Notes: generated by a model from the sequence alone, not told the origin. Shown: positions 3,924 through 20,279, counted from the first letter of the stretch. The stretch: DNA of 20,709 nt from a virus (IMGVR_UViG_3300034071_000526:1-20709), one strand, 5' to 3'. Translations and numbers: made by a program.

Positions 3924-4041
3924 TAAGTGTGGAATTGAAAAACCGCTTGACAAAGACCATTACCAGGTTGTAAAATACTTCCGTGATGGTTTCTCCTATT
4001 ACTGCCACGACTGCTCTAAACCTAAACCAAGAAATGACTGA
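3835..4041 (+). CDS. Zinc-ribbon (CxxC/CxxC) protein, start uncertain
   Basis: The convincing part is the last 40 residues: ICDKCGIEKPLDKDHY, then about 24 residues after the first CxxC a second, YYCHDC. This is a zinc ribbon of the CxxCG-x-EKP-L type common in phage HNH-associated and stand-alone small proteins. The only ATG in frame is 3835, which would overlap the preceding gene by 89 bases with an odd leader peptide. No ATG, GTG or TTG lies between 3838 and the zinc ribbon. The domain may be expressed from a non-canonical start or as a +1 frameshift fusion after the A6 run at 3903-3908. A sequence error is also possible. Confidence 0.6.
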   Translation: MLTLLTKILRLNLKNSKRSESLSKKTRICDKCGIEKPLDKDHYQVVKYFRDGFSYYCHDCSKPKPRND

Positions 4042-4597
4042 CTTTAATTACAAAAAGTATTCACTCGAAAACCTTGAAAATTGGTTGCATGATGCAATGT
4101 CTTGTGGTGAAACAACACCTCAAGAAATCTATGATGTCATTGTTGGTGTAGTGAAGGAAAACTATTATATCTACAAACACCAAACGTCTCAAGCATATGA
4201 ACTTCTTGCACTTTTGAATAGTGGAGTTGACAATAACAAATATCAGGATTATCTAAATGAAATCCTGAGTTGTGATAAAGATGATCCTTCACCCGAATGT
4301 AAAGGTGCTTGGAATGATTTTTGGGAGAGCAATAATACTGTGGAATATGATCTGAGAGAGGCAGAATATTATAATAAAGAAGTATTTGTAAGCGAAGACG
4401 GAGACATCTATCCCACGAGAGATAAAGTAGTAAAGTGGCAACTACCTGTCGAAGTTGATGGGTTAACTGGAGAGTGTTTTATTCAATTACCAGATGATTT
4501 GTTAGAAGCAGCAAATCTAAAAGAGGGCGATCAAGTAGAATGGATTGATAGAAATGATGGTAGTTTTGAATTGAGGAAAGTAAATGGCACTAAGTGA
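4034..4597 (+). CDS. Protein with C-terminal AbrB/MazE-like domain, 187 aa
   Basis: Two parts are visible. Residues 1-100 form a helical domain (LENWLHDAMSCGETTPQEIY near the N-terminus) similar to a protein I recall from cyanomyoviruses. Residues about 145-183 read ECFIQLPDDLLEAANLKEGD followed by VEWIDRNDGSFELRKV. This is a good SpoVT/AbrB swapped-hairpin pattern: beta strand, PxxLLxxxxLxxGD, beta strand. Such domains dimerise and bind DNA, often in antitoxins and transition-state regulators. No toxin gene is evident next door. ATG 4034 overlaps the previous stop. A DNA-binding regulatory role is inference. Confidence 0.85.
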   Translation: MTDFNYKKYSLENLENWLHDAMSCGETTPQEIYDVIVGVVKENYYIYKHQTSQAYELLALLNSGVDNNKYQDYLNEILSCDKDDPSPECKGAWNDFWESNNTVEYDLREAEYYNKEVFVSEDGDIYPTRDKVVKWQLPVEVDGLTGECFIQLPDDLLEAANLKEGDQVEWIDRNDGSFELRKVNGTK

Positions 4598-5068: not shown

Positions 5069-5108
5069 TTACTCTGGGGCCTTGAAAGTGTCCCTATAGT
5101 GTAAGCAC
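5069..5108 (+). promoter_or_regulatory. Repeated promoter-like element, copy 1
   Basis: Matches the 13-copy consensus: GGGGCCTTGAAAG box, TATAGT at 5095-5100 as -10, then GTAAGCAC. The following start codon (5117) lies downstream of the element, compatible with transcription starting near 5107. Confidence 0.75.
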
Positions 5109-5116
5109 TCAACTCA

Positions 5117-5527
5117 ATGGCAACCCGCGCACGAATCGGTCTCGAACTGAAGAACGGTAGCGTTCTGTCTGTCTATCACCACTGGGATGGTTATCCTGAG
5201 TGGTTGGGTCGTATTCTCACCACTCACTACAACACTCGTGCTAAAGCAGCAGAACTGATTGATGGTGGAGATATGAGTTCTGCGTGGACTAATGCTGGTT
5301 TCAATAATGAAACTGTCGCACAAGGTCCTCTGTATTATTCTCAACGTGGCGAAGATCTTCCTCCTCGTTTAGATCAGGACCTGTGTGAGTTTCTACTTCC
5401 TGATAATAACGAAGAGTTTGCATATGTCTTCCGCAATGGTGAGTGGGTATGTTATAATATGAATCAGTTTGATGATTCCAAACTTCCTGAAGTTGTTGAA
5501 ATCCCCTCTGGAGCACTTGCAGTATGA
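5117..5527 (+). CDS. Conserved cyanophage protein, 136 aa
   Basis: The protein begins MATRARIGLELKNGSVLSVY and continues HHWDGYPEWLGRIL, then GGDMSSAWT and a C-terminal YVFRNGEWVCYN. This arrangement is familiar from conserved proteins in cyanophages and other large phages (a small beta-rich protein with an HWDGYP motif). The role is unknown. It is the first gene behind element copy 1; the leader has no Shine-Dalgarno sequence. The ATG at 5524 of the next gene overlaps its stop. Confidence 0.87.
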   Translation: MATRARIGLELKNGSVLSVYHHWDGYPEWLGRILTTHYNTRAKAAELIDGGDMSSAWTNAGFNNETVAQGPLYYSQRGEDLPPRLDQDLCEFLLPDNNEEFAYVFRNGEWVCYNMNQFDDSKLPEVVEIPSGALAV

Positions 5528-7965: not shown

Positions 7966-8005
7966 AAACCCTGGGGCCTTAAAAGTGTACCTATAATGTA
8001 ATCAC
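7966..8005 (+). promoter_or_regulatory. Repeated promoter-like element, copy 2
   Basis: A divergent copy (AACCCTGGGGCCTTAAAAGT, then GTACC) with a perfect TATAAT at 7992-7997 and GTAATCAC. It follows the stop of the MKTF gene by 2 bases. The next ATG is 8015, downstream of the predicted transcription start near 8004. Confidence 0.72.
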
Positions 8006-8014
8006 CCACACACT

Positions 8015-8149
8015 ATGGATTGGTTCGACGACATTCAAATTGAAGAACTTGAGAACTTTGACTTTATTGAAGAGGACATTTCTGAACTTGTTGAAGAAAC
8101 AAAAAACTTCAATATGAACGAATATCTTAACTCTAACATTGACTACTGA
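8015..8149 (+). CDS. Very acidic small protein, 44 aa
   Basis: ATG 8015 is the first start after element copy 2; no Shine-Dalgarno sequence is present. The product has 15 Asp/Glu and one Lys in 44 residues (DWFDDIQIEELENFDFIEED near the N-terminus). Strong negative charge and aromatic spacing are compatible with a DNA-mimic or a polymerase-binding protein, but this is only charge-based inference. A perfect hairpin overlaps its stop codon. Confidence 0.75.
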   Translation: MDWFDDIQIEELENFDFIEEDISELVEETKNFNMNEYLNSNIDY

Positions 8150-9045: not shown

Positions 9046-9085
9046 TAACTCTGGGGCCTTGAAAGTGTCCCTATAGTATAAGCAC
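9046..9085 (+). promoter_or_regulatory. Repeated promoter-like element, copy 3
   Basis: Near-consensus copy with TATAGT at 9072-9077 followed by ATAAGCAC, which lacks the in-element ATG. It begins 2 bases after the stop codon of the upstream gene. The next gene starts at 9096. Confidence 0.76.
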
Positions 9086-9095
9086 TTCCTTCATA

Positions 9096-9299
9096 ATGGA
9101 CCGAATCGAAATCCAACGCGCACTCTATGATGCTCGCAATGAGTATGCGAAGGCAAAGAAATCTGTAGAGTTTTGGACTCGTGAGATTTCTTTCCTGAAA
9201 GAGTGTGAAGACAACCTCAATAAAGGTCGCACTGGAGATTGGTTGTTTAATGAAATGTTTGGCGATACTCCACTCGCTGAAGAAGTTTATGGGGGTTGA
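9096..9299 (+). CDS. Small charged protein, 67 aa
   Basis: First gene after element copy 3, with a short CTTCCTTCATA leader and no Shine-Dalgarno sequence. It is helical in the first 45 residues (RIEQRAL-type start, IQRALYDARNEYAKAKKSV), then an acidic tail. Followed at once by an intrinsic terminator, so it is probably a one-gene transcription unit. Function unknown. Confidence 0.82.
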   Translation: MDRIEIQRALYDARNEYAKAKKSVEFWTREISFLKECEDNLNKGRTGDWLFNEMFGDTPLAEEVYGG

Positions 9300-9574: not shown

Positions 9575-9612
9575 ACTCTGGGGCCTTGAAATTGTCCCTA
9601 TAATATGAGCAC
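9573..9612 (+). promoter_or_regulatory. Repeated promoter-like element, copy 4
   Basis: Overlaps the last bases of the upstream stop. It has a perfect TATAAT at 9599-9604 followed by ATGAGCAC. The in-element ATG (9605) is in frame with the helicase N-terminal ORF, but a second ATG at 9620 lies downstream of the predicted transcription start (near 9611). Confidence 0.77.
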
Positions 9613-9766
9613 CAACCATATGCAAATCAAACTCCGCCCTCACCAAGAACGTGGTGTTGCTGCTATGCAAAAGCACGCCAAAGGTCAAATCATTGTTCCT
9701 ACTGGTGGCGGTAAGACTTTGATGATGATTCAAGACGCAATGATTCAACTTCAACAACAGAACTGA
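9605..9766 (+). CDS. Split SF2 helicase, N-terminal piece (Walker A)
   Basis: This 53-aa ORF carries only the beginning of a superfamily II helicase: a Q-motif-like LRPHQERGV (residues 10-18) and Walker A PTGGGKT (residues 32-38) followed by LMMIQDAM. It then stops (TGA 9764-9766), and the rest of the helicase begins at the overlapping ATG 9766 in the next frame (TGATG). The start could be ATG 9605 inside the repeat element or, more naturally for the fold, ATG 9620 (MQIKLRPHQ). Both give the same motifs. The piece cannot work as a helicase alone. It may assemble with the second ORF, be joined to it by frameshifting, or result from a recent mutation or sequence error. Confidence 0.82.
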   Translation: MSTNHMQIKLRPHQERGVAAMQKHAKGQIIVPTGGGKTLMMIQDAMIQLQQQN

Positions 9767-10866
9767 TGACACAAACTACCCAGACCATTGTTGTTGTTGC
9801 TCCTCGCATTTTGCTTGCTGAGCAACTCTCTGCTGAGTTTCTTGAGTTTATCACCAATGTCGAAGTGATGCACGTTCACAGTGGAGAAACGCATCACTTC
9901 AGTTCCACACGTCCGCGTGAGATTCGCAACTGGGTTGAAGCAAATGCTGGCAATCATCGCCTGATTGTAACCACCTACAACTCTCTGTCGCGTCTTCAAG
10001 TGGCAGAGATTGATGTGGACACAATCTACTTCGACGAAGCACATAACTCTGTTCAGCGTCACTTTTTCCCTGCAACTGAGCACTTTGCTGCTAATGCAAA
10101 GCGTTGCTACTTCTTCACTGCAACGCCGAAACATTCCCTTGCTGTGGGTAAACCAGGTATGAATGATGCTGCTGTTTATGGTCAGGTGATCTGCAAAGTT
10201 CCTGCTCCTGAGTTGGTTCAAGGTGGATACATTGTTCCCCCTAAAGTGATCGTCAAGCAACTGGAGATGGTTAAGGGCAAGCAGACCAACTTCGACCGTG
10301 ATGCTGAGAATCTTCTGGAAACCATTGATGACAATCAAGTCGGCAAGATTCTGATCTGTGCTAAGGCAACCAAGCAAATCGTGTCTCTGGTTTCTGAGAC
10401 TGACTTCTGCTCTGAGTTGGAGTCTCGCGGTTACTCTTGGATGTATATCACGGCAAAGACTGGTGCTGTTATCGACGGCAAGAAAGTGAACCGTGAGGTA
10501 TTCTTCGACACGCTATCTGCTTGGGGTAAGGATAACGACAAGAAGTTCGTTGTTCTACACCATAGCATCCTTGCTGAAGGTATCAACGTCAGCGGTCTGG
10601 AAGCGGTACTCTTCCTGCGTAATATGGACTTCATTGGTATCAGTCAGACCATTGGACGTTGCATCCGTCTGCATCACGATGATGCCAAAGGTATGCGCGA
10701 TGGGCGTATCGAACCTGGCAACCTCAGTCAGTATAGCAAATCGTTCGGTCTTGTTTGTATCCCAGTGTACTCCAAGGTTGGTATTGCTACTGCCCGCAGT
10801 GTGCAGGCGGTGGTAGATACGATCTTTGAAAAGGGCGAACCTGCCGTATCGGTGGTGAGGCGGTGA
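9766..10866 (+). CDS. Split SF2 DEAH helicase, main piece
   Basis: The 366-aa protein continues the helicase from motif Ia onward: VVVAPRILLAEQL (9-21, motif Ia), DEAH at 90-93 (motif II, Walker B), TATP at 118-121 (motif III). The second RecA domain has KILICAKATKQIVSL, LAEGINVSGLEAVLFLRN (motif V) and QTIGRCIRLH (motif VI). Only Walker A is missing, and it sits in the upstream ORF overlapping by one base at TGATG. ATP-dependent DNA/RNA unwinding or branch remodelling, as in T4 UvsW-type helicases, is expected for the reconstituted protein. I cannot say it is UvsW itself. Base use looks more GC-rich than in the small genes of the first 8 kb. Confidence 0.9.
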   Translation: MTQTTQTIVVVAPRILLAEQLSAEFLEFITNVEVMHVHSGETHHFSSTRPREIRNWVEANAGNHRLIVTTYNSLSRLQVAEIDVDTIYFDEAHNSVQRHFFPATEHFAANAKRCYFFTATPKHSLAVGKPGMNDAAVYGQVICKVPAPELVQGGYIVPPKVIVKQLEMVKGKQTNFDRDAENLLETIDDNQVGKILICAKATKQIVSLVSETDFCSELESRGYSWMYITAKTGAVIDGKKVNREVFFDTLSAWGKDNDKKFVVLHHSILAEGINVSGLEAVLFLRNMDFIGISQTIGRCIRLHHDDAKGMRDGRIEPGNLSQYSKSFGLVCIPVYSKVGIATARSVQAVVDTIFEKGEPAVSVVRR

Positions 10867-12270: not shown

Positions 12271-12310
12271 TAACTTTGGGGCCTTCAAAGTGTCTCTATA
12301 GTGTAGTCAC
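12271..12310 (+). promoter_or_regulatory. Repeated promoter-like element, copy 5
   Basis: Copy with TTTGGGGCCTTCAAAG and TATAGT at 12297-12302, then GTAGTCAC (no in-element ATG). The next gene starts at 12321. Starts 3 bases after the upstream stop. Confidence 0.75.
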
Positions 12311-12590: not shown

Positions 12591-12603
12591 TAAACTGTCA
12601 CAT

Positions 12604-12634
12604 GAGCACTTGCAATTTAGCAGGTGCTCTTTTA
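12604..12634 (+). terminator. Intrinsic terminator
   Basis: GAGCAC and TGC pair with GCA and GTGCTC around one mismatch, with loop AATTTA, followed by TTTTATT. It lies 14 bases after the stop at 12590. Confidence 0.78.
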
Positions 12635-12659
12635 TTGTACTTTTGTTCTTGAAACTCCA

Positions 12660-12863
12660 ATGATTTTCCTTACTGTTGCCGATCACGGATGTGTTTATAC
12701 TCTGTCTCAAGAAGATGGGGATGAGTTGTATTATGCTCCCATTTATGAAAATGGTAGTGTAAATCTTGAAGAGTTTGCTCCTGTAGATCTGGACAGTGTA
12801 GATATGGATCAAATGGAACTCTTTGACATTCGCAATCGTCTTGCCAAACTGATGGAGGTTTGA
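12660..12863 (+). CDS. Small acidic protein, 67 aa
   Basis: ATG 12660 is chosen because the longer frame (12624) begins inside the terminator. The product reads MIFLTVADHGCVYTLSQEDG with acidic stretches (LEEFAPVDLDSVDMDQMELF). No promoter is obvious between the terminator and the gene. It ends just before element copy 6. Function unknown. Confidence 0.8.
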   Translation: MIFLTVADHGCVYTLSQEDGDELYYAPIYENGSVNLEEFAPVDLDSVDMDQMELFDIRNRLAKLMEV

Positions 12864-12865
12864 TC

Positions 12866-12908
12866 TAACTCTGGGGCCTTGAAACTGTACCTATAATATG
12901 AAGAACAC
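12866..12908 (+). promoter_or_regulatory. Repeated promoter-like element, copy 6
   Basis: TAACTCTGGGGCCTTGAAAC, GTACC, perfect TATAAT at 12892-12897, then ATGAAGAACAC, with three extra bases before CAC. The ATG (12898) is the only plausible start of the next gene. Confidence 0.75.
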
Positions 12909-13794
12909 TCACCTGGAACATCCTGAAGATAGCATCCTTACTGGGGATCTATCTGTACTTGATTGGTTCTCTGAACCTGATAGTTTCATCAGTGTAAAGA
13001 TGGACGGTGCCCCAGCATTAGTTTGGGGAACCAACCCTGCGAATGGTAAGTTCTTCGTTGGGACCAAAAGTGTCTTCAACAAAGTTAAAATCAAGATCAA
13101 TCATTCTCATGAAGAAATTGATGCGAATCATGAAGGTAAGGTTGCAGACATTCTTCATGCTGCTTTTGATTGCCTTCCTCGCACAAAGTCTATCATTCAA
13201 GGTGATTTTCTGGGTTTTGGTGGTTCTGATACTTATCGCCCCAACACGATTACTTACGTTTTCCCGCAGGTAATCACTCAGGACATTATCATCGCTCCCC
13301 ATACAATCTATGGTGGTGGGAATGATCTGCGTGAAGTTTCTGCTGCTCCTCTGACTAGCAAACTCTTCGGCACTAATCGTTGCCTGTTCGTGCAACCTTC
13401 TGTGATGCTGAACCCTTATCGTGAGGATCTGGAGGATGTGTGTAAGTTTGCAAAGCAAATGAGCACTCTGTGTGAGTTTGTAAGCGATCGGAAAGCAACA
13501 CAAATCAAAAAAGAGATCAATGCCTGCATCCGTGAGCAAAAGGTCGTGAATGAAGATGAAATTGCAGAAAAATGTGAATGTGACAAGTATCTCATCTCTT
13601 TGTGGAAACTGGTGAAGTCGATCAAAGATGATTTGTTCCTGTTCATTCACGAAATGGATGAGATTGAATGTTATCTGTGGGATGCGCAATCCTTCCATGA
13701 AGGTTATGTCATCGTCAATCAATTTGGGACGTTCAAAGTAGTGGATCGTGAAGTATTCTCTCACGCAAACTTTACTGCAACCAAGAATTGGTGA
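12898..13794 (+). CDS. Putative ligase/nucleotidyltransferase-fold protein, 298 aa
   Basis: The sequence has an apparent covalent-nucleotidyltransferase layout. It has ISVKMDGAPALVWG with K34-x-D-G37 (motif I, lysine for AMP attachment), GDFLGFGG at about 102-109 (possible motif III region), EGYVIV at 268-273 (motif IV, E-G-x-V) and FKVVD with K280 (possible motif V). These are the signatures of ATP-dependent DNA/RNA ligases and capping enzymes, in the expected order. The conserved N-terminal LEHPEDSIL precedes motif I. I recall uncharacterised relatives in T4-like phages. The start ATG 12898 lies inside element copy 6; the next in-frame ATG is Met35, inside motif I, so it cannot be the start. 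A ligase activity is inference from motifs only. Confidence 0.85.
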   Translation: MKNTHLEHPEDSILTGDLSVLDWFSEPDSFISVKMDGAPALVWGTNPANGKFFVGTKSVFNKVKIKINHSHEEIDANHEGKVADILHAAFDCLPRTKSIIQGDFLGFGGSDTYRPNTITYVFPQVITQDIIIAPHTIYGGGNDLREVSAAPLTSKLFGTNRCLFVQPSVMLNPYREDLEDVCKFAKQMSTLCEFVSDRKATQIKKEINACIREQKVVNEDEIAEKCECDKYLISLWKLVKSIKDDLFLFIHEMDEIECYLWDAQSFHEGYVIVNQFGTFKVVDREVFSHANFTATKNW

Positions 13795-13797
13795 ATG

Positions 13798-13837
13798 TAA
13801 CTCTGGGGCCTTCAAAGTGTCCTTATAGTATGAGCAC
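13798..13837 (+). promoter_or_regulatory. Repeated promoter-like element, copy 7
   Basis: TAACTCTGGGGCCTTCAAAG, then TCCT, TATAGT at 13824-13829 and ATGAGCAC. The in-element ATG (13830) is in frame with the next gene; a second ATG lies at 13845. Confidence 0.76.
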
Positions 13838-14261
13838 AACTGTTATGCAAGCACAAGCACAACAAACCATTGCAGAGAATGTGTATAAGCACACTCTAGC
13901 ACTGATTGAAGCACTGAAAGACAATTATCGTCAATATGCTATTCGCGGTCATCAAAAGTTCGTGAATGATTCTGTCACTCAAGACTATCATCAGCGGAAG
14001 ATTGATGAACTCAAGTCTGGTAAATGTGACATTGATTATGTCATTGAAACTGGTAAAAAGTATCACAAAGTCATTATGGTTGATAGTAGCAGCAACCGCA
14101 GTGTTCATTGCTTCATTGATAAAAACACTGGCGAACTGTATAAATCGCAGTCGTGGAAATCTCCTGCCAAAGGTGTTCGCTACGATCTGCGATTGATTAA
14201 AGATCGTGAATGGTTATTTGAGAACGCTGATTGGTCTGCTGGTTACACTTACGCTAAGTGA
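13830..14261 (+). CDS. Conserved cyanophage protein, 143 aa
   Basis: The C-terminal half (HKVIMVDSSSNRSVHCFIDK, then NTGELYKSQSWKSPAKGVRY) matches a family I recall from cyanophages (VHAF.DK.TG.VYKP..W..PAKGVR). The N-terminal half is helical (NVYKHTLALIEALKDNYRQY). Length is ordinary for the family as I remember it. The start is either ATG 13830, inside element copy 7, or ATG 13845, just after it. The family's function is unknown. Confidence 0.85.
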   Translation: MSTTVMQAQAQQTIAENVYKHTLALIEALKDNYRQYAIRGHQKFVNDSVTQDYHQRKIDELKSGKCDIDYVIETGKKYHKVIMVDSSSNRSVHCFIDKNTGELYKSQSWKSPAKGVRYDLRLIKDREWLFENADWSAGYTYAK

Positions 14262-14263
14262 TT

Positions 14264-14509
14264 ATGTATTCCTTCAAACCTTCTGAGTCTGGTGATTACG
14301 TTGCTGCGTTTGATGTTGCAGCAACTTTGGTTATCAAATCCCTCATCAAGAAAGGTGCAAAGTTTATTCGCCTTCATGATGACCTATATGATACATTAGG
14401 AGCAGAGACTAAAGCAGAGCAAACAAGTGTTAGGATGGCAGTTCGCAAAGCAAAGGCATCTGGTTTGCTAGTTAAAACCCAAATTGATACAATTTACGCT
14501 GTAAAATGA
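14264..14509 (+). CDS. Small protein, 81 aa, possible winged-helix-like
   Basis: ATG 14264 lies 2 bases after the upstream TGA (TGATTATG junction). The product reads YSFKPSESGDYVAAFDVAAT, then ETKAEQTSVRMAVRKAKASG and a final LVKTQIDTIYAVK. The last 45 residues look helical then beta, vaguely like a winged-helix DNA-binding unit, but I do not assign it. A GTG at 14258 is the alternative start. Confidence 0.8.
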   Translation: MYSFKPSESGDYVAAFDVAATLVIKSLIKKGAKFIRLHDDLYDTLGAETKAEQTSVRMAVRKAKASGLLVKTQIDTIYAVK

Positions 14510-14742
14510 CTGACTACCAACAAGAAATTAAAGACCTGACTGTAACAAAATCTCTGCGACTTTTGTGTAATGGTTTCAAGAGTGAGTTTGCTACATCCGT
14601 GTTTGCAGATGAGCGAACGACTGAACTTTTTGCTCAACTTGCAAGTGAGTTTGTTCAGTCAAACATTCCTGTGATTGATGATGAGAATCAAATGGAACTT
14701 GCTATGATGCTGTTAGAAACTCTGGACATTATTGCACGATGA
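14506..14742 (+). CDS. Small acidic helical protein, 78 aa
   Basis: ATG 14506 gives an ATGA overlap with the upstream stop. It is helical and acidic, with TDYQQEIKDLTVTKSLRLL at the N-terminus and NQMELAMMLLETLDIIAR at the end. No motif recognised. Confidence 0.8.
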   Translation: MTDYQQEIKDLTVTKSLRLLCNGFKSEFATSVFADERTTELFAQLASEFVQSNIPVIDDENQMELAMMLLETLDIIAR

Positions 14743-14993
14743 CTTACTCTAATCTCTCAAAGATTCGTCCTAAACTGAGAACAACTGGGCGTGTGTCTGG
14801 TAACTTCGGACGCAATAAAGTTTCTGTGGGGTCATCACTCAATGACATCGGTGGTGATGGTAACATAGGTGCCACACAGTCAGAATACTTAAATCGTCTT
14901 TATTATGCGTTTGATAACACTACCGACTCTAAACTTCGTCAGTTCATTTATCAGGAGATCAAAAAGATTCTCATTCAGCAAGGTAAATGGTAA
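14739..14993 (+). CDS. Small protein with Gly/Ser-rich N-terminus, 84 aa
   Basis: ATG 14739 overlaps the upstream stop (ATGA). The first 40 residues are basic and Gly/Ser-rich (RPKLRTTGRVSGNFGRNKV), the rest helical (SKLRQFIYQEIKKILIQQGK). Possibly nucleic-acid binding from charge; not recognised. It is followed after 7 bases by element copy 8. Confidence 0.8.
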   Translation: MTYSNLSKIRPKLRTTGRVSGNFGRNKVSVGSSLNDIGGDGNIGATQSEYLNRLYYAFDNTTDSKLRQFIYQEIKKILIQQGKW

Positions 14994-15000
14994 GCAACAG

Positions 15001-15040
15001 TAACTCTGGGGCCTTGAAAGTGTCTCTATAGTATGAGCAC
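15001..15040 (+). promoter_or_regulatory. Repeated promoter-like element, copy 8
   Basis: TAACTCTGGGGCCTTGAAAG, TCTC, TATAGT at 15027-15032 and ATGAGCAC. The in-element ATG (15033) is the most plausible start of the next gene; the next in-frame ATG is codon 24. Confidence 0.78.
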
Positions 15041-15272
15041 TAACATCGTTTCCGAAATCTACTCCTACCACACCGATTGGAAGGAAGGTAAAGTCAACCA
15101 GATGTGGATTGAGCAGTCTGGTGATGAGAACAAAGGTTATTCCTACGTCGCCGTTGCACACAATCCCCGCAATGGTAAGACGATGGAGATGTCCAACCCT
15201 CGCACATCTTACCAAGAAACTCTCAAATGGGTTCGCGGTTGGTGTGGAACTTTCTGCTCACTTTCTGTTTGA
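15033..15272 (+). CDS. Small conserved-looking protein, 79 aa
   Basis: The product reads MSTNIVSEIYSYHTDWKEGK, then YSYVAVAHNPRNGKTMEMSN and LKWVRGWCGTF. It looks like a compact alpha/beta protein with two Cys at the end. ATG 15033 lies within element copy 8. Starting at codon 24 instead would remove an N-terminal segment that looks like folded protein. Function unknown. Confidence 0.8.
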   Translation: MSTNIVSEIYSYHTDWKEGKVNQMWIEQSGDENKGYSYVAVAHNPRNGKTMEMSNPRTSYQETLKWVRGWCGTFCSLSV

Positions 15273-15278
15273 TTGATT

Positions 15279-15362
15279 ATGATTACTGGAATCCTGGTGC
15301 TGCTTGCTTACTCTTTAGGAGCAGCACAAGTTCTTCTTATTCAACACCTCAATCGTAACTGA
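15279..15362 (+). CDS. Membrane micropeptide, 27 aa
   Basis: ATG 15279 follows two closely placed TGA codons (TGATTGATTATG). The peptide is one hydrophobic helix (MITGILVLLAYSLGAAQVLL) with a short polar end (IQHLNRN). Its stop forms the TGATTATG junction used by the next gene. Small size makes it less certain, but the repeated junction supports it. Confidence 0.6.
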   Translation: MITGILVLLAYSLGAAQVLLIQHLNRN

Positions 15363-15364
15363 TT

Positions 15365-15553
15365 ATGAAACAATCACAAAAGGATAAAGTTCGCCTGTTT
15401 ATTATCAATCAACTTTATGAGTTGAATGATTTAAGGTTGAAACTTGATGAACTTGCTGATACTTATGAAATCGAACCCTTAGAGGCGATGGAGTTCTTTG
15501 AGAATGAAGTAGAAAGGATTAACAAACTCTTCAACTATCCTGGGCAAGAATGA
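15365..15553 (+). CDS. Small helical acidic protein, 62 aa
   Basis: ATG 15365 follows the upstream TGA by 2 bases (TGATTATG). It is helical throughout (FIINQLYELNDLRLKLDELA, then EAMEFFENEVERINKLF). The central region (LKLDELADTYEIEP) could be a helix-turn-helix-like element, but I would not assign one. Stop overlaps the next ATG. Confidence 0.8.
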   Translation: MKQSQKDKVRLFIINQLYELNDLRLKLDELADTYEIEPLEAMEFFENEVERINKLFNYPGQE

Positions 15554-15714
15554 TGAAAAACTATCGCGTAATGGTTGAAACCAACGATGGATGTGTGACC
15601 GTTTGGTATGAGAAATCCAATGCAAAGACTGCGGACAAACTGATACTCAATCGGGTCTATAATCAACTCTGTGGTCTAAACATTAAGGAAATCTCAGTTA
15701 ATCCCTCTGTATGA
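15553..15714 (+). CDS. Small protein, 53 aa
   Basis: ATG 15553 overlaps the upstream TGA (TGATG); ATG 15550 is in frame and equally possible. The product reads KNYRVMVETNDGCVTVWYEK and ends LNIKEISVNPSV, a beta-alpha-beta mini-domain. Similar small RV.VE..DG proteins are common in cyanophages. Function unknown. Confidence 0.78.
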   Translation: MKNYRVMVETNDGCVTVWYEKSNAKTADKLILNRVYNQLCGLNIKEISVNPSV

Positions 15715-15869
15715 CTAAGATAACCGAACTTGAGGAGTTTCTACATGAAAAGTGTATGGAAAGTCCTGCTCTTCTTGCTGTAGTGATTGGCGAATATATT
15801 AAGAGTTTGAATAAATCTCAAATCACACAACTTGAAGACTTTTTAGTCAAAAACTTTGGAGACGATTGA
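15711..15869 (+). CDS. Small acidic helical protein, 52 aa
   Basis: ATG 15711 overlaps the preceding stop (ATGA). The peptide is helical (ITELEEFLHEKCMESPALLA, then QLEDFLVKNFGDD) with one Cys. Not recognised. Confidence 0.78.
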   Translation: MTKITELEEFLHEKCMESPALLAVVIGEYIKSLNKSQITQLEDFLVKNFGDD

Positions 15870-15872
15870 ATC

Positions 15873-16016
15873 ATGAAGTACATCGTTGAATTATACGTGG
15901 GTGGCAAAGTCTTTAAGGAGGAAGTGTATGCTAACTCTCCCAAAGATGCCCGCGTGACTGCACTTGCAAGAAACCCAACTGCAAAGGTTATTGGAGTGAA
16001 TGGAACTTTCAAATAA
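15873..16016 (+). CDS. Conserved small cyanophage protein, 47 aa
   Basis: ATG 15873 lies 3 bases after the upstream TGA. The sequence (MKYIVELYVGGKVFKEEVYA, then ARNPTAKVIGV) matches a pattern I recall from cyanomyoviruses (MKY.V.LYVGGK...EEV.A..P.DA...A.ARNP.AKV). It is predicted to be a small beta-alpha-beta protein. Function unknown. Confidence 0.84.
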   Translation: MKYIVELYVGGKVFKEEVYANSPKDARVTALARNPTAKVIGVNGTFK

Positions 16017-16019
16017 CAG

Positions 16020-16059
16020 TAACTCTGGGGCCTTGAAAGTGTCCCTATAGTATGAGCAC
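16020..16059 (+). promoter_or_regulatory. Repeated promoter-like element, copy 9
   Basis: Exact consensus with TATAGT at 16046-16051 and ATGAGCAC. The in-element ATG (16052) is the only ATG of the following ORF. Confidence 0.78.
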
Positions 16060-16222
16060 AACCTACTCCGTCCGATTCGAGTCACCTTCACTCAACTCTC
16101 CCGAGTATATTGGACCTTTCTACACTGAAGATGCTGCCCAAGATTATGCTGATGATCGCAACAGTTCTTTAGCATTATCTGGTATTCCTTCAAGTGTAGC
16201 ATTTTATTCTGTTGTTTCCTGA
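16052..16222 (+). CDS. Small protein starting inside the element, 56 aa
   Basis: This ORF reads MSTTYSVRFESPSLNSPEYI, then TEDAAQDYADDRNSSLALSG, ending AFYSVVS. There is no other Met, GTG or TTG in the frame, so the ATG inside element copy 9 must be the start if the gene is real. The YSVRFESPS / A..YADDR pattern resembles a small cyanophage protein. It ends in the TGATTATG junction with the next gene. Confidence 0.75.
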   Translation: MSTTYSVRFESPSLNSPEYIGPFYTEDAAQDYADDRNSSLALSGIPSSVAFYSVVS

Positions 16223-16224
16223 TT

Positions 16225-16410
16225 ATGAAGTTCATCGGTAACTGCATTAACTCTTTTGATGAGAATGGTGATTGTATCATTCCTTCACTTCCATTCGCAA
16301 ATGTCACTGAGTTTGCCCAACTTGTTGAAGAAAGTGATAATGTAGAGATTGGTGATTTCATTATTCAATACGACGAAGAAACCGACGTTCATTCATTCTA
16401 CTTTAACTGA
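16225..16410 (+). CDS. Small acidic protein, 61 aa
   Basis: ATG 16225 follows the upstream TGA by 2 bases. It is acidic, beta-rich (FIGNCINSFDENGDCIIPSL) and ends in DFIIQYDEETDVHSFYFN. It has two cysteines. Another TGATTATG junction leads to the next gene. Function unknown. Confidence 0.8.
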   Translation: MKFIGNCINSFDENGDCIIPSLPFANVTEFAQLVEESDNVEIGDFIIQYDEETDVHSFYFN

Positions 16411-16412
16411 TT

Positions 16413-16616
16413 ATGCAATTCCAAGTTACTGAAATTGAGTTTGATTTTGATGATTCTGCTTCCTATGAGAAGACAGATGACTATTTCCAAACTGTCATTG
16501 ATGACACCTTAGGTACAATCTGGGAAGCAGATGATGAAGAAGATCTAGTCGAAGAGATCACATGTGCAACTGGTTGGTGCATTAAATCCATTGATTATCG
16601 TCACATTCTGAAATGA
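16413..16616 (+). CDS. Conserved-looking acidic protein, 67 aa
   Basis: The product reads MQFQVTEIEFDFDDSASYEK, then LGTIWEADDEEDLVEEITCA and TGWCIKSIDYRHIL. The WEADDEEDLVEEI-T--TGWCI-S-DYRH arrangement is familiar from cyanophages. It is strongly acidic, alpha/beta, with two Cys. Starts 2 bases after the upstream TGA. Function unknown. Confidence 0.85.
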   Translation: MQFQVTEIEFDFDDSASYEKTDDYFQTVIDDTLGTIWEADDEEDLVEEITCATGWCIKSIDYRHILK

Positions 16617-16747
16617 GAATTGCTTTTCTGATTGCAACTTTAGCACTGGGACTTCGCCTAGGTTTGAGTGCTCATGCCACAGTGAATGAGTATCAAGAAC
16701 AGCAAGCAGATGGCATCTGTCAGATAGATCCTAACTATTGCAAATAA
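16613..16747 (+). CDS. Small exported protein with signal peptide, 44 aa
   Basis: ATG 16613 overlaps the upstream stop (ATGA). A clear signal peptide covers residues 1-22: basic start (MR), hydrophobic core (IAFLIATLALGLRLGLSA) and an Ala-x-Ala-type site (AHA before TVNE). The mature peptide is about 22 residues, acidic, with two cysteines (GICQIDPNYCK) that could form one disulfide. It would act in the periplasm or thylakoid lumen of the host. Export is inferred from the signal; role unknown. Confidence 0.78.
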   Translation: MRIAFLIATLALGLRLGLSAHATVNEYQEQQADGICQIDPNYCK

Positions 16748-16757
16748 TTTCCATTCC

Positions 16758-16797
16758 TAACTCTGGGGCCTTGAAAGTGTCCCTATAGTATGAACAC
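16758..16797 (+). promoter_or_regulatory. Repeated promoter-like element, copy 10
   Basis: Consensus copy with TATAGT at 16784-16789 and ATGAACAC. The in-element ATG (16790) starts the next ORF; its next Met is codon 20. Confidence 0.78.
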
Positions 16798-16972
16798 TAC
16801 TCCAATCGACTTCCAAACCGACATCACTCCTACACTTCTGGAGTTTATGTGCAACAATCACACTGATCTGAATGACTGTGTAGACTTTGTTTGCTGTCAG
16901 TTTGATCTTGATGCAACTGATGAGTTGATTGATCAAATTGCAGACGAGTTCGAAGCATTTTTCGGCAACTGA
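16790..16972 (+). CDS. Small acidic protein, 60 aa
   Basis: The product reads MNTTPIDFQTDITPTLLEFM, then CNNHTDLNDCVDFVCCQFDL and a helical acidic end (DELIDQIADEFEAFFGN). It is very acidic with four Cys. Starting at codon 20 would cut the first helix. Function unknown. Confidence 0.8.
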   Translation: MNTTPIDFQTDITPTLLEFMCNNHTDLNDCVDFVCCQFDLDATDELIDQIADEFEAFFGN

Positions 16973-16994
16973 TTTCCCACTCATTAACAAACAA

Positions 16995-17177
16995 ATGACA
17001 AACTACAATCCCTACGTTGAAACCCTGATTGAGATGGGTTATGATGAACAAGACTGTCGCAATGTTGCATCAGTAGGTGAATTGAATCCCACTTATCCGC
17101 GTATCATTCACGGTCGCACATTTGCAACTGAAAGTGAATATAAGCAAGCACTTTCTGACTTTATCAATGGACTTTGA
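16995..17177 (+). CDS. Small protein, 60 aa
   Basis: ATG 16995 is chosen; the longer frame (16929) would run 44 bases back into the upstream gene. The product reads MTNYNPYVETLIEMGYDEQD, then GRTFATESEYKQALSDFING. Helical, soluble. The 22-base leader has no Shine-Dalgarno sequence. Function unknown. Confidence 0.8.
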   Translation: MTNYNPYVETLIEMGYDEQDCRNVASVGELNPTYPRIIHGRTFATESEYKQALSDFINGL

Positions 17178-17180
17178 GCA

Positions 17181-17321
17181 ATGATTGAAACTGATTTCTT
17201 TATACTCACTCATGATCAATACCATCAATTCAATTCTGAAGCAACTGAACTTGGTGTGAGTGTTGATTACTTTTTATCTGAGTTTTGTACTGTAGAAGGT
17301 GAGTGGGTTGATGTTGAATGA
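17181..17321 (+). CDS. Small acidic protein, 46 aa
   Basis: ATG 17181 lies 3 bases after the previous stop. The sequence (MIETDFFILTHDQYHQFNSE, then LGVSVDYFLSEFCTVEGEWV) resembles a small conserved cyanophage ORF (Y..EA..L...DYF..EF). Acidic and helical. Its stop codon touches element copy 11. Confidence 0.8.
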   Translation: MIETDFFILTHDQYHQFNSEATELGVSVDYFLSEFCTVEGEWVDVE

Positions 17322-17360
17322 AACTCTGGGGCCTTGAAAGTGTACCTATAGTATGAACAC
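17321..17360 (+). promoter_or_regulatory. Repeated promoter-like element, copy 11
   Basis: AAACTCTGGGGCCTTGAAAG, TACC, TATAGT at 17347-17352 and ATGAACAC. The in-element ATG (17353) is the only Met of the following 95-aa ORF. Confidence 0.78.
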
Positions 17361-17640: not shown

Positions 17641-17679
17641 AACTCTGGGGCCTTGAAAGTGTCCCTATAGTGTAACCAC
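17640..17679 (+). promoter_or_regulatory. Repeated promoter-like element, copy 12
   Basis: AAACTCTGGGGCCTTGAAAG, TCCC, TATAGT at 17666-17671 and GTAACCAC (no ATG). It overlaps the last base of the upstream stop. The next gene starts at 17694. Confidence 0.78.
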
Positions 17680-17693
17680 AACGCTTCCCACAA

Positions 17694-18008
17694 ATGACCC
17701 GCCTAATCGAACGTCAAATGAATCGTGCAATCAGCACTGAGACTGATTGGAAGAAAGACAACACTGAAGTGATCAACATTGAAGGTGTAAGTTTCGTCTA
17801 TCTGTATAGCAATCTGATTGCAATGGTAGGTGATACTTGGTTGGAATTGTTTGATGGTGGACATCAAACTGCAACCACCAAATCGCGTCTTAATGCTATT
17901 CTCTCTGAGCACGGAAATGGAGAGTATGTGTATCAAAAGAACTTCAACTGGTTTGTATCAACAATCGACTGCGTTGTTCCTTTCGGTAATGGTATCAAAC
18001 TCGACTGA
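17694..18008 (+). CDS. Conserved small protein, 104 aa
   Basis: It reads MTRLIERQMNRAISTETDWK, then EVINIEGVSFVYLYSNLIAM and TATTKSRLNAILSEHGNGEY. The alpha-then-beta layout with V.....V.LY.N.IA..... T.STKSRLNAIL..... resembles a conserved cyanophage family I recall. First gene after element copy 12; short CA-rich leader, no Shine-Dalgarno. Function unknown. Confidence 0.85.
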   Translation: MTRLIERQMNRAISTETDWKKDNTEVINIEGVSFVYLYSNLIAMVGDTWLELFDGGHQTATTKSRLNAILSEHGNGEYVYQKNFNWFVSTIDCVVPFGNGIKLD

Positions 18009-18864: not shown

Positions 18865-18875
18865 TTATACTGTAG

Positions 18876-18905: not shown

Positions 18906-19436
18906 TTATGGATGAGGTAAAGTATTCATCACTTTTCTTAATCCGTATTGATTGATGTATTGTTCCAATGCACCTTCAATTATACTATTCATAAACTCAT
19001 AAGAGTTAGGAACTGGTAATCCTTTTCTTATACTTGCTGAATGAACTTCTTTCATCTTTGCTAATACAAAGTGATTTACACTAAATCCATTCACAGTGCC
19101 ATTATGTTCTATGTTCTTCTTCTTACTTACCCACTCCAAGTTTTCCAGTCTGTTATCACTACTGTTTCTGTTTCTATGATTAACTTCCATTGTAATATCG
19201 TCGGTTGGGATGAATACGAGAGCAACTAATCTATGAACTAAAAAGTTCTTTTTTCTTCCAGTCTTATCTGTTAATAATACCGTCCTATATCCGTGATTTT
19301 TCTTCTTCCATCCAGGAGAAAGTATCCTTGGTTTGTTATATTTGAAGGACCATACATTACCCTCAGTGTCTACACCATATCCAGGATAATCTCCTAGGTG
19401 TTTTGTATTCTCAAGTCTCAGTAATCTTGCTTCCAT
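18906..19436 (-). CDS. HNH homing endonuclease with NUMOD4-like N-terminus
   Basis: The only minus-strand gene. The 176-aa product has a NUMOD4-like segment near residues 10-25 (LGDYPGYGVDTEGNVWSFKY), then LVHRLVALVFIP and VNHRNRNSSDNRLENLEWVS, the HNH metal-binding core (H-N-R-x-x-x-D-N-x-x-x-N-L). These are typical of free-standing phage homing endonucleases, which cut DNA and spread their own gene. I chose the start at 19436 because a sigma-70-like promoter just upstream (19458-19486) would put transcription start near 19451, leaving the longer start (19526) untranscribed. It looks more AT-rich than the genes nearby, consistent with insertion. Confidence 0.9.
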   Translation of the reverse strand: MEARLLRLENTKHLGDYPGYGVDTEGNVWSFKYNKPRILSPGWKKKNHGYRTVLLTDKTGRKKNFLVHRLVALVFIPTDDITMEVNHRNRNSSDNRLENLEWVSKKKNIEHNGTVNGFSVNHFVLAKMKEVHSASIRKGLPVPNSYEFMNSIIEGALEQYINQYGLRKVMNTLPHP

Positions 19437-19976: not shown

Positions 19977-20019
19977 TAACTCTGGGGCCTTGAAAGTGTC
20001 CCTATAGTGTAAGGGGCAC
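19977..20019 (+). promoter_or_regulatory. Repeated promoter-like element, copy 13
   Basis: TAACTCTGGGGCCTTGAAAG, TCCC, TATAGT at 20003-20008, then GTAAGGGGCAC with three extra bases before CAC, as in copy 6. The next ATG is 20052, the longest leader of the set. Confidence 0.77.
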
Positions 20020-20051: not shown

Positions 20052-20279
20052 ATGACCATCCTCAAAGATATGTACACTGGCAAAGTTCGTCTCTCCCTTG
20101 TGGAAGATGATGCTTTCCTGAGTGCAATCGAAGGTCTGCAATCCTTCGTTCTTGATACTAATGCCGATTGCGATACTGCATACGATTGGGTATGCGATCA
20201 GTGCAACATTCATTCCTTCGTTGCTGACAACTATGCGTGGGATAAGTTCTTCTGGACCTACCAATCTGCAGTCGCCTGA
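20052..20279 (+). CDS. Small acidic protein, 75 aa
   Basis: Reads MTILKDMYTGKVRLSLVEDD, then CDTAYDWVCDQCNIHSFVAD and ends in WDKFFWTYQSAVA. It has three Cys, is acidic and Trp-rich. First gene after element copy 13; the 33-base CA-rich leader lacks a Shine-Dalgarno sequence. Not recognised. Confidence 0.82.
   Translation: MTILKDMYTGKVRLSLVEDDAFLSAIEGLQSFVLDTNADCDTAYDWVCDQCNIHSFVADNYAWDKFFWTYQSAVA

What the first reader, a model, noticed from the sequence alone, without database searches (positions are those of the whole stretch)
12866..17360. Start codons lie inside the promoter-like element
In copies 4, 6, 7, 8, 9, 10 and 11 the bases after TATA(G/A)T are ATG, in frame with the next gene. 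Under the -10 model this ATG is at -6 to -4 and would not be transcribed. Copies 4 and 7 have a second ATG just downstream. Copies 6, 9 and 11 have no usable alternative (in copy 6 the next Met lies inside the KxDG motif; copies 9 and 11 have no further Met). So transcription must start upstream of the ATG, or these genes are made only from readthrough mRNA, or initiation uses a non-standard codon. The other copies (GTGTAA, ATAAGC, GTAGTC) lack the ATG and start further down.
Basis: partly seen in the sequence, partly recalled or inferred. Interest (0 to 1): 0.66.

Follow-up and report, generated by a model that had tools for sequence, protein, structure and literature searches.

The report
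Promoter-embedded start codons: probable leaderless mRNAs
In a large family of viruses of marine cyanobacteria, the start codon of many early genes is built into the last bases of a repeated promoter, most likely because the messenger RNA begins exactly at the start codon with no leader in front of it.

Summary
The window is a fragment of a T4-like cyanomyovirus with 13 copies of the element. Seven have ATG directly after TATA(G/A)T, in frame with a gene.

Among 533 non-redundant copies from related viral contigs, the first usable ATG lies at offset 0 (220 copies) or at 14 nt and beyond; only 11 lie between. ATG at offset 0 is in frame with the downstream gene (139 v 11) and is the only possible start in 72 copies from 14 gene families.

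In sister phages the same gene (DUF6267) has a textbook promoter: palindrome, 30-31 nt, -10 box, 6 nt, ATG, so the ATG is +1. Start-codon spacing in those promoters (0 or 15-19 nt from +1) matches the window type only if +1 is at or within about 2 nt of offset 0. Intrinsic terminators directly upstream in five relatives, and single-gene cassettes (50 of 62 loci), argue against readthrough.

Best reading: leaderless mRNAs, with the start codon as part of the promoter. What recognises this promoter, which lacks a -10 box in the normal register, is unknown. No RNA data exist.

The parts
5076..5100 (+). element copy 1 (GGGGCC...TATAGT), non-ATG class; start ATG at 5117
7973..7997 (+). element copy 2, non-ATG class; start ATG at 8015
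9053..9077 (+). element copy 3, non-ATG class (ATAAGC); start ATG at 9096
9580..9604 (+). element copy 4, ATG class; ATG at 9605, second in-frame ATG 15 nt on
12278..12302 (+). element copy 5, non-ATG class
12595..12660 (+). a promoter of the other (palindrome) type: CTGTCAC 12595-12601, 31 nt holding an intrinsic terminator hairpin, TATTGT 12633-12638, 6 nt, predicted +1 at 12645, leader 15 nt, ATG 12660
12866..12900 (+). element copy 6 with ATG 12898 as its last three bases; only usable start of the DUF6267 gene
12898..13794 (+). DUF6267 protein (298 aa); N-terminus MKNTHLEHPEDSIL conserved; single-gene cassette (next element 11 nt after the stop)
13805..13829 (+). element copy 7, ATG class, second in-frame ATG 15 nt on; DUF7717 gene follows
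   Evidence: (1 mismatch)
15008..15032 (+). element copy 8, ATG class, ATG 15033, no nearby alternative start
16027..16051 (+). element copy 9, ATG class, ATG 16052 is the only Met of the protein
16765..16789 (+). element copy 10, ATG class, ATG 16790
17328..17352 (+). element copy 11, ATG class, ATG 17353 is the only Met; single-gene cassette (next element at 17647)
17647..17671 (+). element copy 12, non-ATG class; start ATG at 17694
19984..20008 (+). element copy 13, non-ATG class; start ATG at 20052

Best explanation
The repeated element is a phage promoter whose transcription start is the purine directly after TATA(G/A)T. In ATG copies the mRNA begins with the start codon itself (leaderless, within about 2 nt), and the ribosome would start on the 5'-terminal AUG. 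In the other copies the mRNA begins GUAAGCAC and carries a leader of about 15 nt or more. Some ATG copies also have a second in-frame ATG 15-24 nt on, giving a leaderless start plus a leadered one. Shown by sequence: the geometry, the frame bias, the conserved protein N-termini, upstream terminators, single-gene cassettes and the matching geometry in sister promoters. Inferred: the transcription start, 5'-AUG translation, and recognition by a machinery that does not need a -10 box at -12 to -7.
For: (1) First usable ATG is bimodal: 220 at offset 0, 11 at 1-13, onset at 14, peak 17-18. (2) ATG at offset 0 is in frame with the downstream start in 139 of 150 cases, v 95 of 242 for non-ATG copies; 72 copies in 14 families have no other ATG start; sole-start GTG: 0. 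(3) The DUF6267 N-terminus is conserved from residue 1 in six phages whatever the promoter; in 30 of 58 distinct non-window-type upstream regions a -10-like hexamer ends exactly 6 nt before the ATG, e.g. P-SSM2 TATAAT-AAGAGT-ATG. (4) Palindrome-type promoters have fixed spacing (palindrome to -10 box 30-31 nt) and place the ATG at 0 (23) or mostly 15-19 nt from +1. Window-type leaders fit that distribution with +1 at offset 1-2 (0 nearly as good); offset 6 is far worse. (5) Intrinsic terminators lie just upstream of window-type ATG elements of DUF6267 in L261, L268, L273, L157 and L190; shuffles gave 2 of 300. (6) In 50 of 62 such loci another element follows the stop within 14-36 nt, so the promoter has no other gene to serve. 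(7) Offset 0 is a purine in essentially all of 478 copies and offset 1 is T in 95%. (8) Hosts are reported to have leaderless mRNAs (PMC5607370: 6-8% of primary starts within 10 nt of the start codon in Prochlorococcus MED4; PMC6091082: 19 in S. elongatus).
Against: No RNA 5' ends were available. The window-type element has TGTCCC, not a -10 hexamer, at -12 to -7 if the ATG is +1. TATAGT or TAGTRT looks like a -10 box, and a CA step at offsets 5-6 (C 63%, A 79%) could be a conventional start. The +1 of the sister promoters is itself inferred from standard sigma70 spacing. Most class-A copies (148 of 220) have another ATG that opens a long ORF nearby, so they do not strictly need ATG at offset 0.
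Confidence: 0.72

Rival explanations
1. TATAGT is an ordinary -10 box, transcription starts at the A of GCAC about 6 nt on, and ATG-class genes are translated only from readthrough mRNA of upstream promoters.
For: TATAGT resembles a -10 box and a CA step is conserved at offsets 5-6; genes are tightly packed on one strand; the only strong terminators found between cassettes in this part of the window are at 12604 and 18874.
Against: Terminators directly upstream of such elements in five relatives; 50 of 62 DUF6267 cassettes would have a promoter serving no gene; leader lengths would not match those of sister promoters; orthologues have the ATG at the inferred +1 of textbook promoters.
Confidence: 0.16
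2. The start lies slightly upstream, for example at the G of TATAG as in T7-like promoters, leaving a 2-nt leader; the element would be read by a single-subunit or other phage RNA polymerase.
For: CTATAG followed by a conserved initial sequence resembles T7-family initiation regions (recalled, not tested).
Against: No PF00940 RNA polymerase in five complete T4-like relatives, while the P-SSP7 control scores E = 2.7e-69. The conserved upstream box reaches beyond -30.
Confidence: 0.06
3. ATG at offset 0 is a tolerated promoter variant that merely adds a few residues (MSTxx) when it happens to be in frame; true starts are the second ATG.
For: 148 of 220 class-A copies have another ATG that opens a long ORF within 45 nt, most often in frame at codon 6 (78 copies).
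Against: 72 copies in 14 families have no other ATG start; the frame bias needs the ATG to be seen by ribosomes.
Confidence: 0.06

Closest known systems
Leaderless mRNAs of bacteria and phages (lambda cI type; TA-led genes of PMC3160421; review PMC9031893)
   Same: AUG start with no leader; in the sister phages the -10 hexamer starts 12 nt before the ATG, the published signature; AUG preferred over GUG; CA-rich bases after the start codon, reported to enhance leaderless translation.
   Different: Here the start codon is part of a promoter repeated about 12 times per genome; the window-type element lacks the TANNNT hexamer at -12; no RNA proof yet.
E. coli mRNAs with a 5'-terminal AUG plus a leadered start (5'-uAUG, PMC4965119)
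   Same: Copies with a second start 15-24 nt downstream have the same two-start layout.
   Different: Here the two starts are in frame and give N-terminal variants of one protein; no Shine-Dalgarno motif was seen.
Early regulatory element of Syn9 (Doron et al. 2016, doi 10.1038/ismej.2015.210; recalled, paper not held)
   Same: Syn9 early-region promoters show palindrome, about 31 nt, TATTCT, 6 nt, GTCAAAGG, the palindrome-type layout used here as comparator.
   Different: The window-type box is a different sequence; I could not check whether that paper covers it or notes leaderless starts.
PeSL promoter-terminator cassettes of T4-like phages (recalled; cited in PMC4503421)
   Same: Terminator hairpin followed at once by an early promoter, as at window 12595-12660 and at many DUF6267 loci.
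   Different: Most window-type copies carry no terminator.

Membership tests
Leaderless mRNA gene | Start codon at or within a few nt of the mRNA 5' end | not testable with these tools
   No RNA data; inferred from geometry
Leaderless mRNA gene | TANNNT hexamer starting about 12 nt before the start codon (PMC3160421) | tested here: not met
   Window type has TGTCCC there. Met in 30 of 58 distinct sister upstream regions of the same gene
Leaderless mRNA gene | Homologues share the same protein start | tested here: met
   DUF6267 N-terminus invariant at M1, K2, N3, H5, H8-D11 in six phages; synonymous changes dominate in codons 2-20
Leaderless mRNA gene | AUG rather than GUG/UUG start | tested here: met
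   72 sole-start ATG, 0 sole-start GTG at offset 0
Host sigma70-type promoter with TATAGT as -10 box | Start 6-7 nt downstream of the hexamer, upstream of the first start codon | tested here: not met
   The start codon would be excluded in 72 sole-start copies; leader-length fit is poor at offset 6
Host sigma70-type promoter with TATAGT as -10 box | A recognisable -35 hexamer 16-18 nt upstream | tested here: not met
   Window sigma70-type matches equal shuffles (38 v 35.8) and none coincides with an element
T7-like single-subunit RNA polymerase promoter | Genome encodes a PF00940 polymerase | tested here: not met
   Absent in five complete relatives, positive control found; the window itself is only a fragment
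PeSL cassette | Stem-loop terminator next to an early promoter between genes | tested here: inconclusive
   Met at 12595-12660 and at several DUF6267 loci, not at most window-type copies

The most novel reading that the evidence does not exclude
The window-type element is a phage-specific promoter without a sigma70 -10 box in the normal register. It fixes initiation at the purine just after TATAGT and thereby encodes the start codon of its gene, giving a whole regulon of leaderless early mRNAs and of dual-start (leaderless plus leadered) genes across cyanomyoviruses.
Probability: 0.4. Interest if true: 0.75.

Novelty: new variant of a known kind. Interest (0 to 1): 0.6.

Why it matters
It turns an apparent contradiction in a very abundant marine virus group into a testable case of systematic leaderless expression early in infection. 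It would correct start-site models for cyanophage early promoters, suggest that infection uses direct ribosome loading on 5'-terminal AUG, and point to an unidentified factor that sets initiation next to TATAGT.

Tried and rejected
T7-like polymerase: searched with PF00940; the first run had no valid control, was repeated with P-SSP7 as positive control and was negative in the five T4-like phages. TAAAGT as an alternative -10 box: rejected because most S-SM2 copies have C at its last position and because the first base varies. Anchoring the transcription start on the RTAAGC motif alone: weakened because S-SRM01 has that motif at two distances from its -10 box; the start-codon spacing test was used instead. 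Ordinary sigma70 promoters just upstream of the elements: no excess over shuffles. Ratio of ATG to non-ATG copies in the large set: not used, because two of the three scans asked for ATG or GTA; in complete sets it is 7 of 13 (window), 4 of 12 (S-SM2) and 4 of 12 (SynMITS9220M01). The Doron et al. 2016 paper on Syn9 is not held. No held paper links leaderless mRNA to cyanophages (two hits, not on this topic).

Full report
WHAT IS THERE. The window is a 20.7 kb viral fragment whose genes match T4-like cyanomyoviruses, Kyanoviridae. Thirteen copies of AACTCTGGGGCCTTGAAAGTGTCCCTATAGT lie on the + strand, where shuffles give none. In seven copies the next three bases are ATG, opening the following gene; in six they are GTA or ATA and the gene starts 16-43 nt further on.

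THE ELEMENT IN RELATIVES. Complete phages S-SM2 and SynMITS9220M01 carry about 12 copies each, confined to the same region between a helicase gene and gp25. They share the core AAAG(T/C)GTCCCTATAGT-RTR-AGCAC, but the box further upstream differs between genomes and is constant within each. Four copies in each have ATG at the same place, and those ATGs are the annotated gene starts. Viral-contig scans gave 533 non-redundant copies.

THE ATG IS A REAL START CODON. Counting from the base after TATA(G/A)T, the first ATG that opens at least 35 codons lies at offset 0 in 220 copies, at 1-13 in 11, and then from 14 with a peak at 17-18. When a downstream ATG also starts the gene, ATG at offset 0 is in frame with it in 139 of 150 cases, v 95 of 242 for copies without ATG there (Fisher P = 1e-28). 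In 72 copies from 14 families no other ATG start exists within 45 nt; no GTG serves as a sole start there. The DUF6267 gene at 12898 keeps the N-terminus MKNTHLEHPEDSIL in six phages with different promoters, and synonymous changes outnumber non-synonymous ones in codons 2-20.

SISTER PROMOTERS RESOLVE THE PARADOX. Many relatives use another promoter: a palindrome (TGTGCCAGTTN...AACTGGCACA), a fixed 30-31 nt, a -10 hexamer, 6 nt, and a purine followed by T. Syn9 promoters are of this kind, and one lies in the window at 12595-12660 with a terminator hairpin inside the spacer. In these promoters the first start codon lies at exactly +1 (23 cases) or mostly 15-19 nt from it, with almost nothing between. 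For DUF6267, 30 of 58 distinct non-window-type upstream regions have a -10-like hexamer ending exactly 6 nt before the ATG, e.g. P-SSM2 TATAAT-AAGAGT-ATG and Bellamy TATCTT-AAGAAC-ATG. That is the published signature of leaderless genes: TANNNT about 12 bp upstream of the start codon (PMC3160421). The window-type copies show the same two-peak distribution. Sliding it over the palindrome-type distribution gives the best fit with +1 at offset 1-2, offset 0 nearly as good, and offset 6 much worse (mean log-likelihood -3.52 and -3.62 v -4.18 over 244 copies). So TATAGT most likely occupies about -6 to -1, and the ATG about +1.

READTHROUGH IS UNLIKELY TO BE THE ANSWER. Strong intrinsic terminators (-10 to -15 kcal/mol) sit directly upstream of window-type ATG elements of DUF6267 in L261, L268, L273, L157 and L190 (2 of 300 shuffles gave any). 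In 50 of 62 such loci the next element comes 14-36 nt after the stop codon, as in the window (gene 12898-13794, next element 13805). A promoter that left out the ATG would then serve no gene.

MECHANISM. Shown: geometry, frame bias, conserved N-termini, terminators, cassette structure. Inferred: transcription starts at the purine after TATAGT; ATG-class mRNAs begin with AUG; ribosomes start on the 5'-terminal AUG. Leaderless mRNAs are reported in the host groups (PMC5607370; PMC6091082). CA-rich bases after the start codon, as in ATGAGCACAAC, are reported to enhance leaderless translation (PMC9031893). Copies with a second in-frame ATG 15-24 nt on resemble E. coli 5'-uAUG mRNAs (PMC4965119), but here both starts give the same protein with a short extension (MSTxx).

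WHAT REMAINS OPEN. If the ATG is +1, the window type has TGTCCC at -12 to -7, so host sigma70 would not see a -10 box in its usual register. No T7-like polymerase occurs in five complete relatives, with a valid positive control. The box at -30 to -17 differs between genomes, which hints at a phage-encoded recognition factor; none was identified. No RNA 5' ends were available; a conventional start at offset 6 is not formally excluded.

Noticed in passing
window 9605-10866: The helicase gene (ResIII/DEAD) is split into two overlapping ORFs (9605-9766 and 9766-10866, different frames); in about 40 related loci it is one frame. Either a recent frameshift or an assembly error.
   Followed up: partly
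window 18906-19433 (-): An HNH_3 endonuclease gene lies on the opposite strand to its neighbours, next to a terminator-like hairpin at 18874.
   Followed up: partly
window 12595-12660: A promoter of the palindrome type with a terminator hairpin inside its 31-nt spacer coexists with the GGGGCC-type elements, so two promoter systems share one region.
   Followed up: yes
L001-L258, upstream box of the element: The box 17-30 nt upstream of the start codon is constant within a genome but differs between genomes (GGGGCCTT, GGGGGGTCGCC, TTACTCACCTC, GGATCCTC, CTGAGGCTTC), as if specificity had changed repeatedly while the AAAGTGTCCCTATAGT core stayed.
   Followed up: no
L328, L330, L289, L294, L163 and others (DUF6267 upstream): A further group has ATTATT directly before the ATG after a terminator; it fits neither promoter type cleanly.
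   Followed up: no
window 3983-4597: A 204-aa protein with a borderline MazE/AbrB-like domain at its C-terminus.
   Followed up: no
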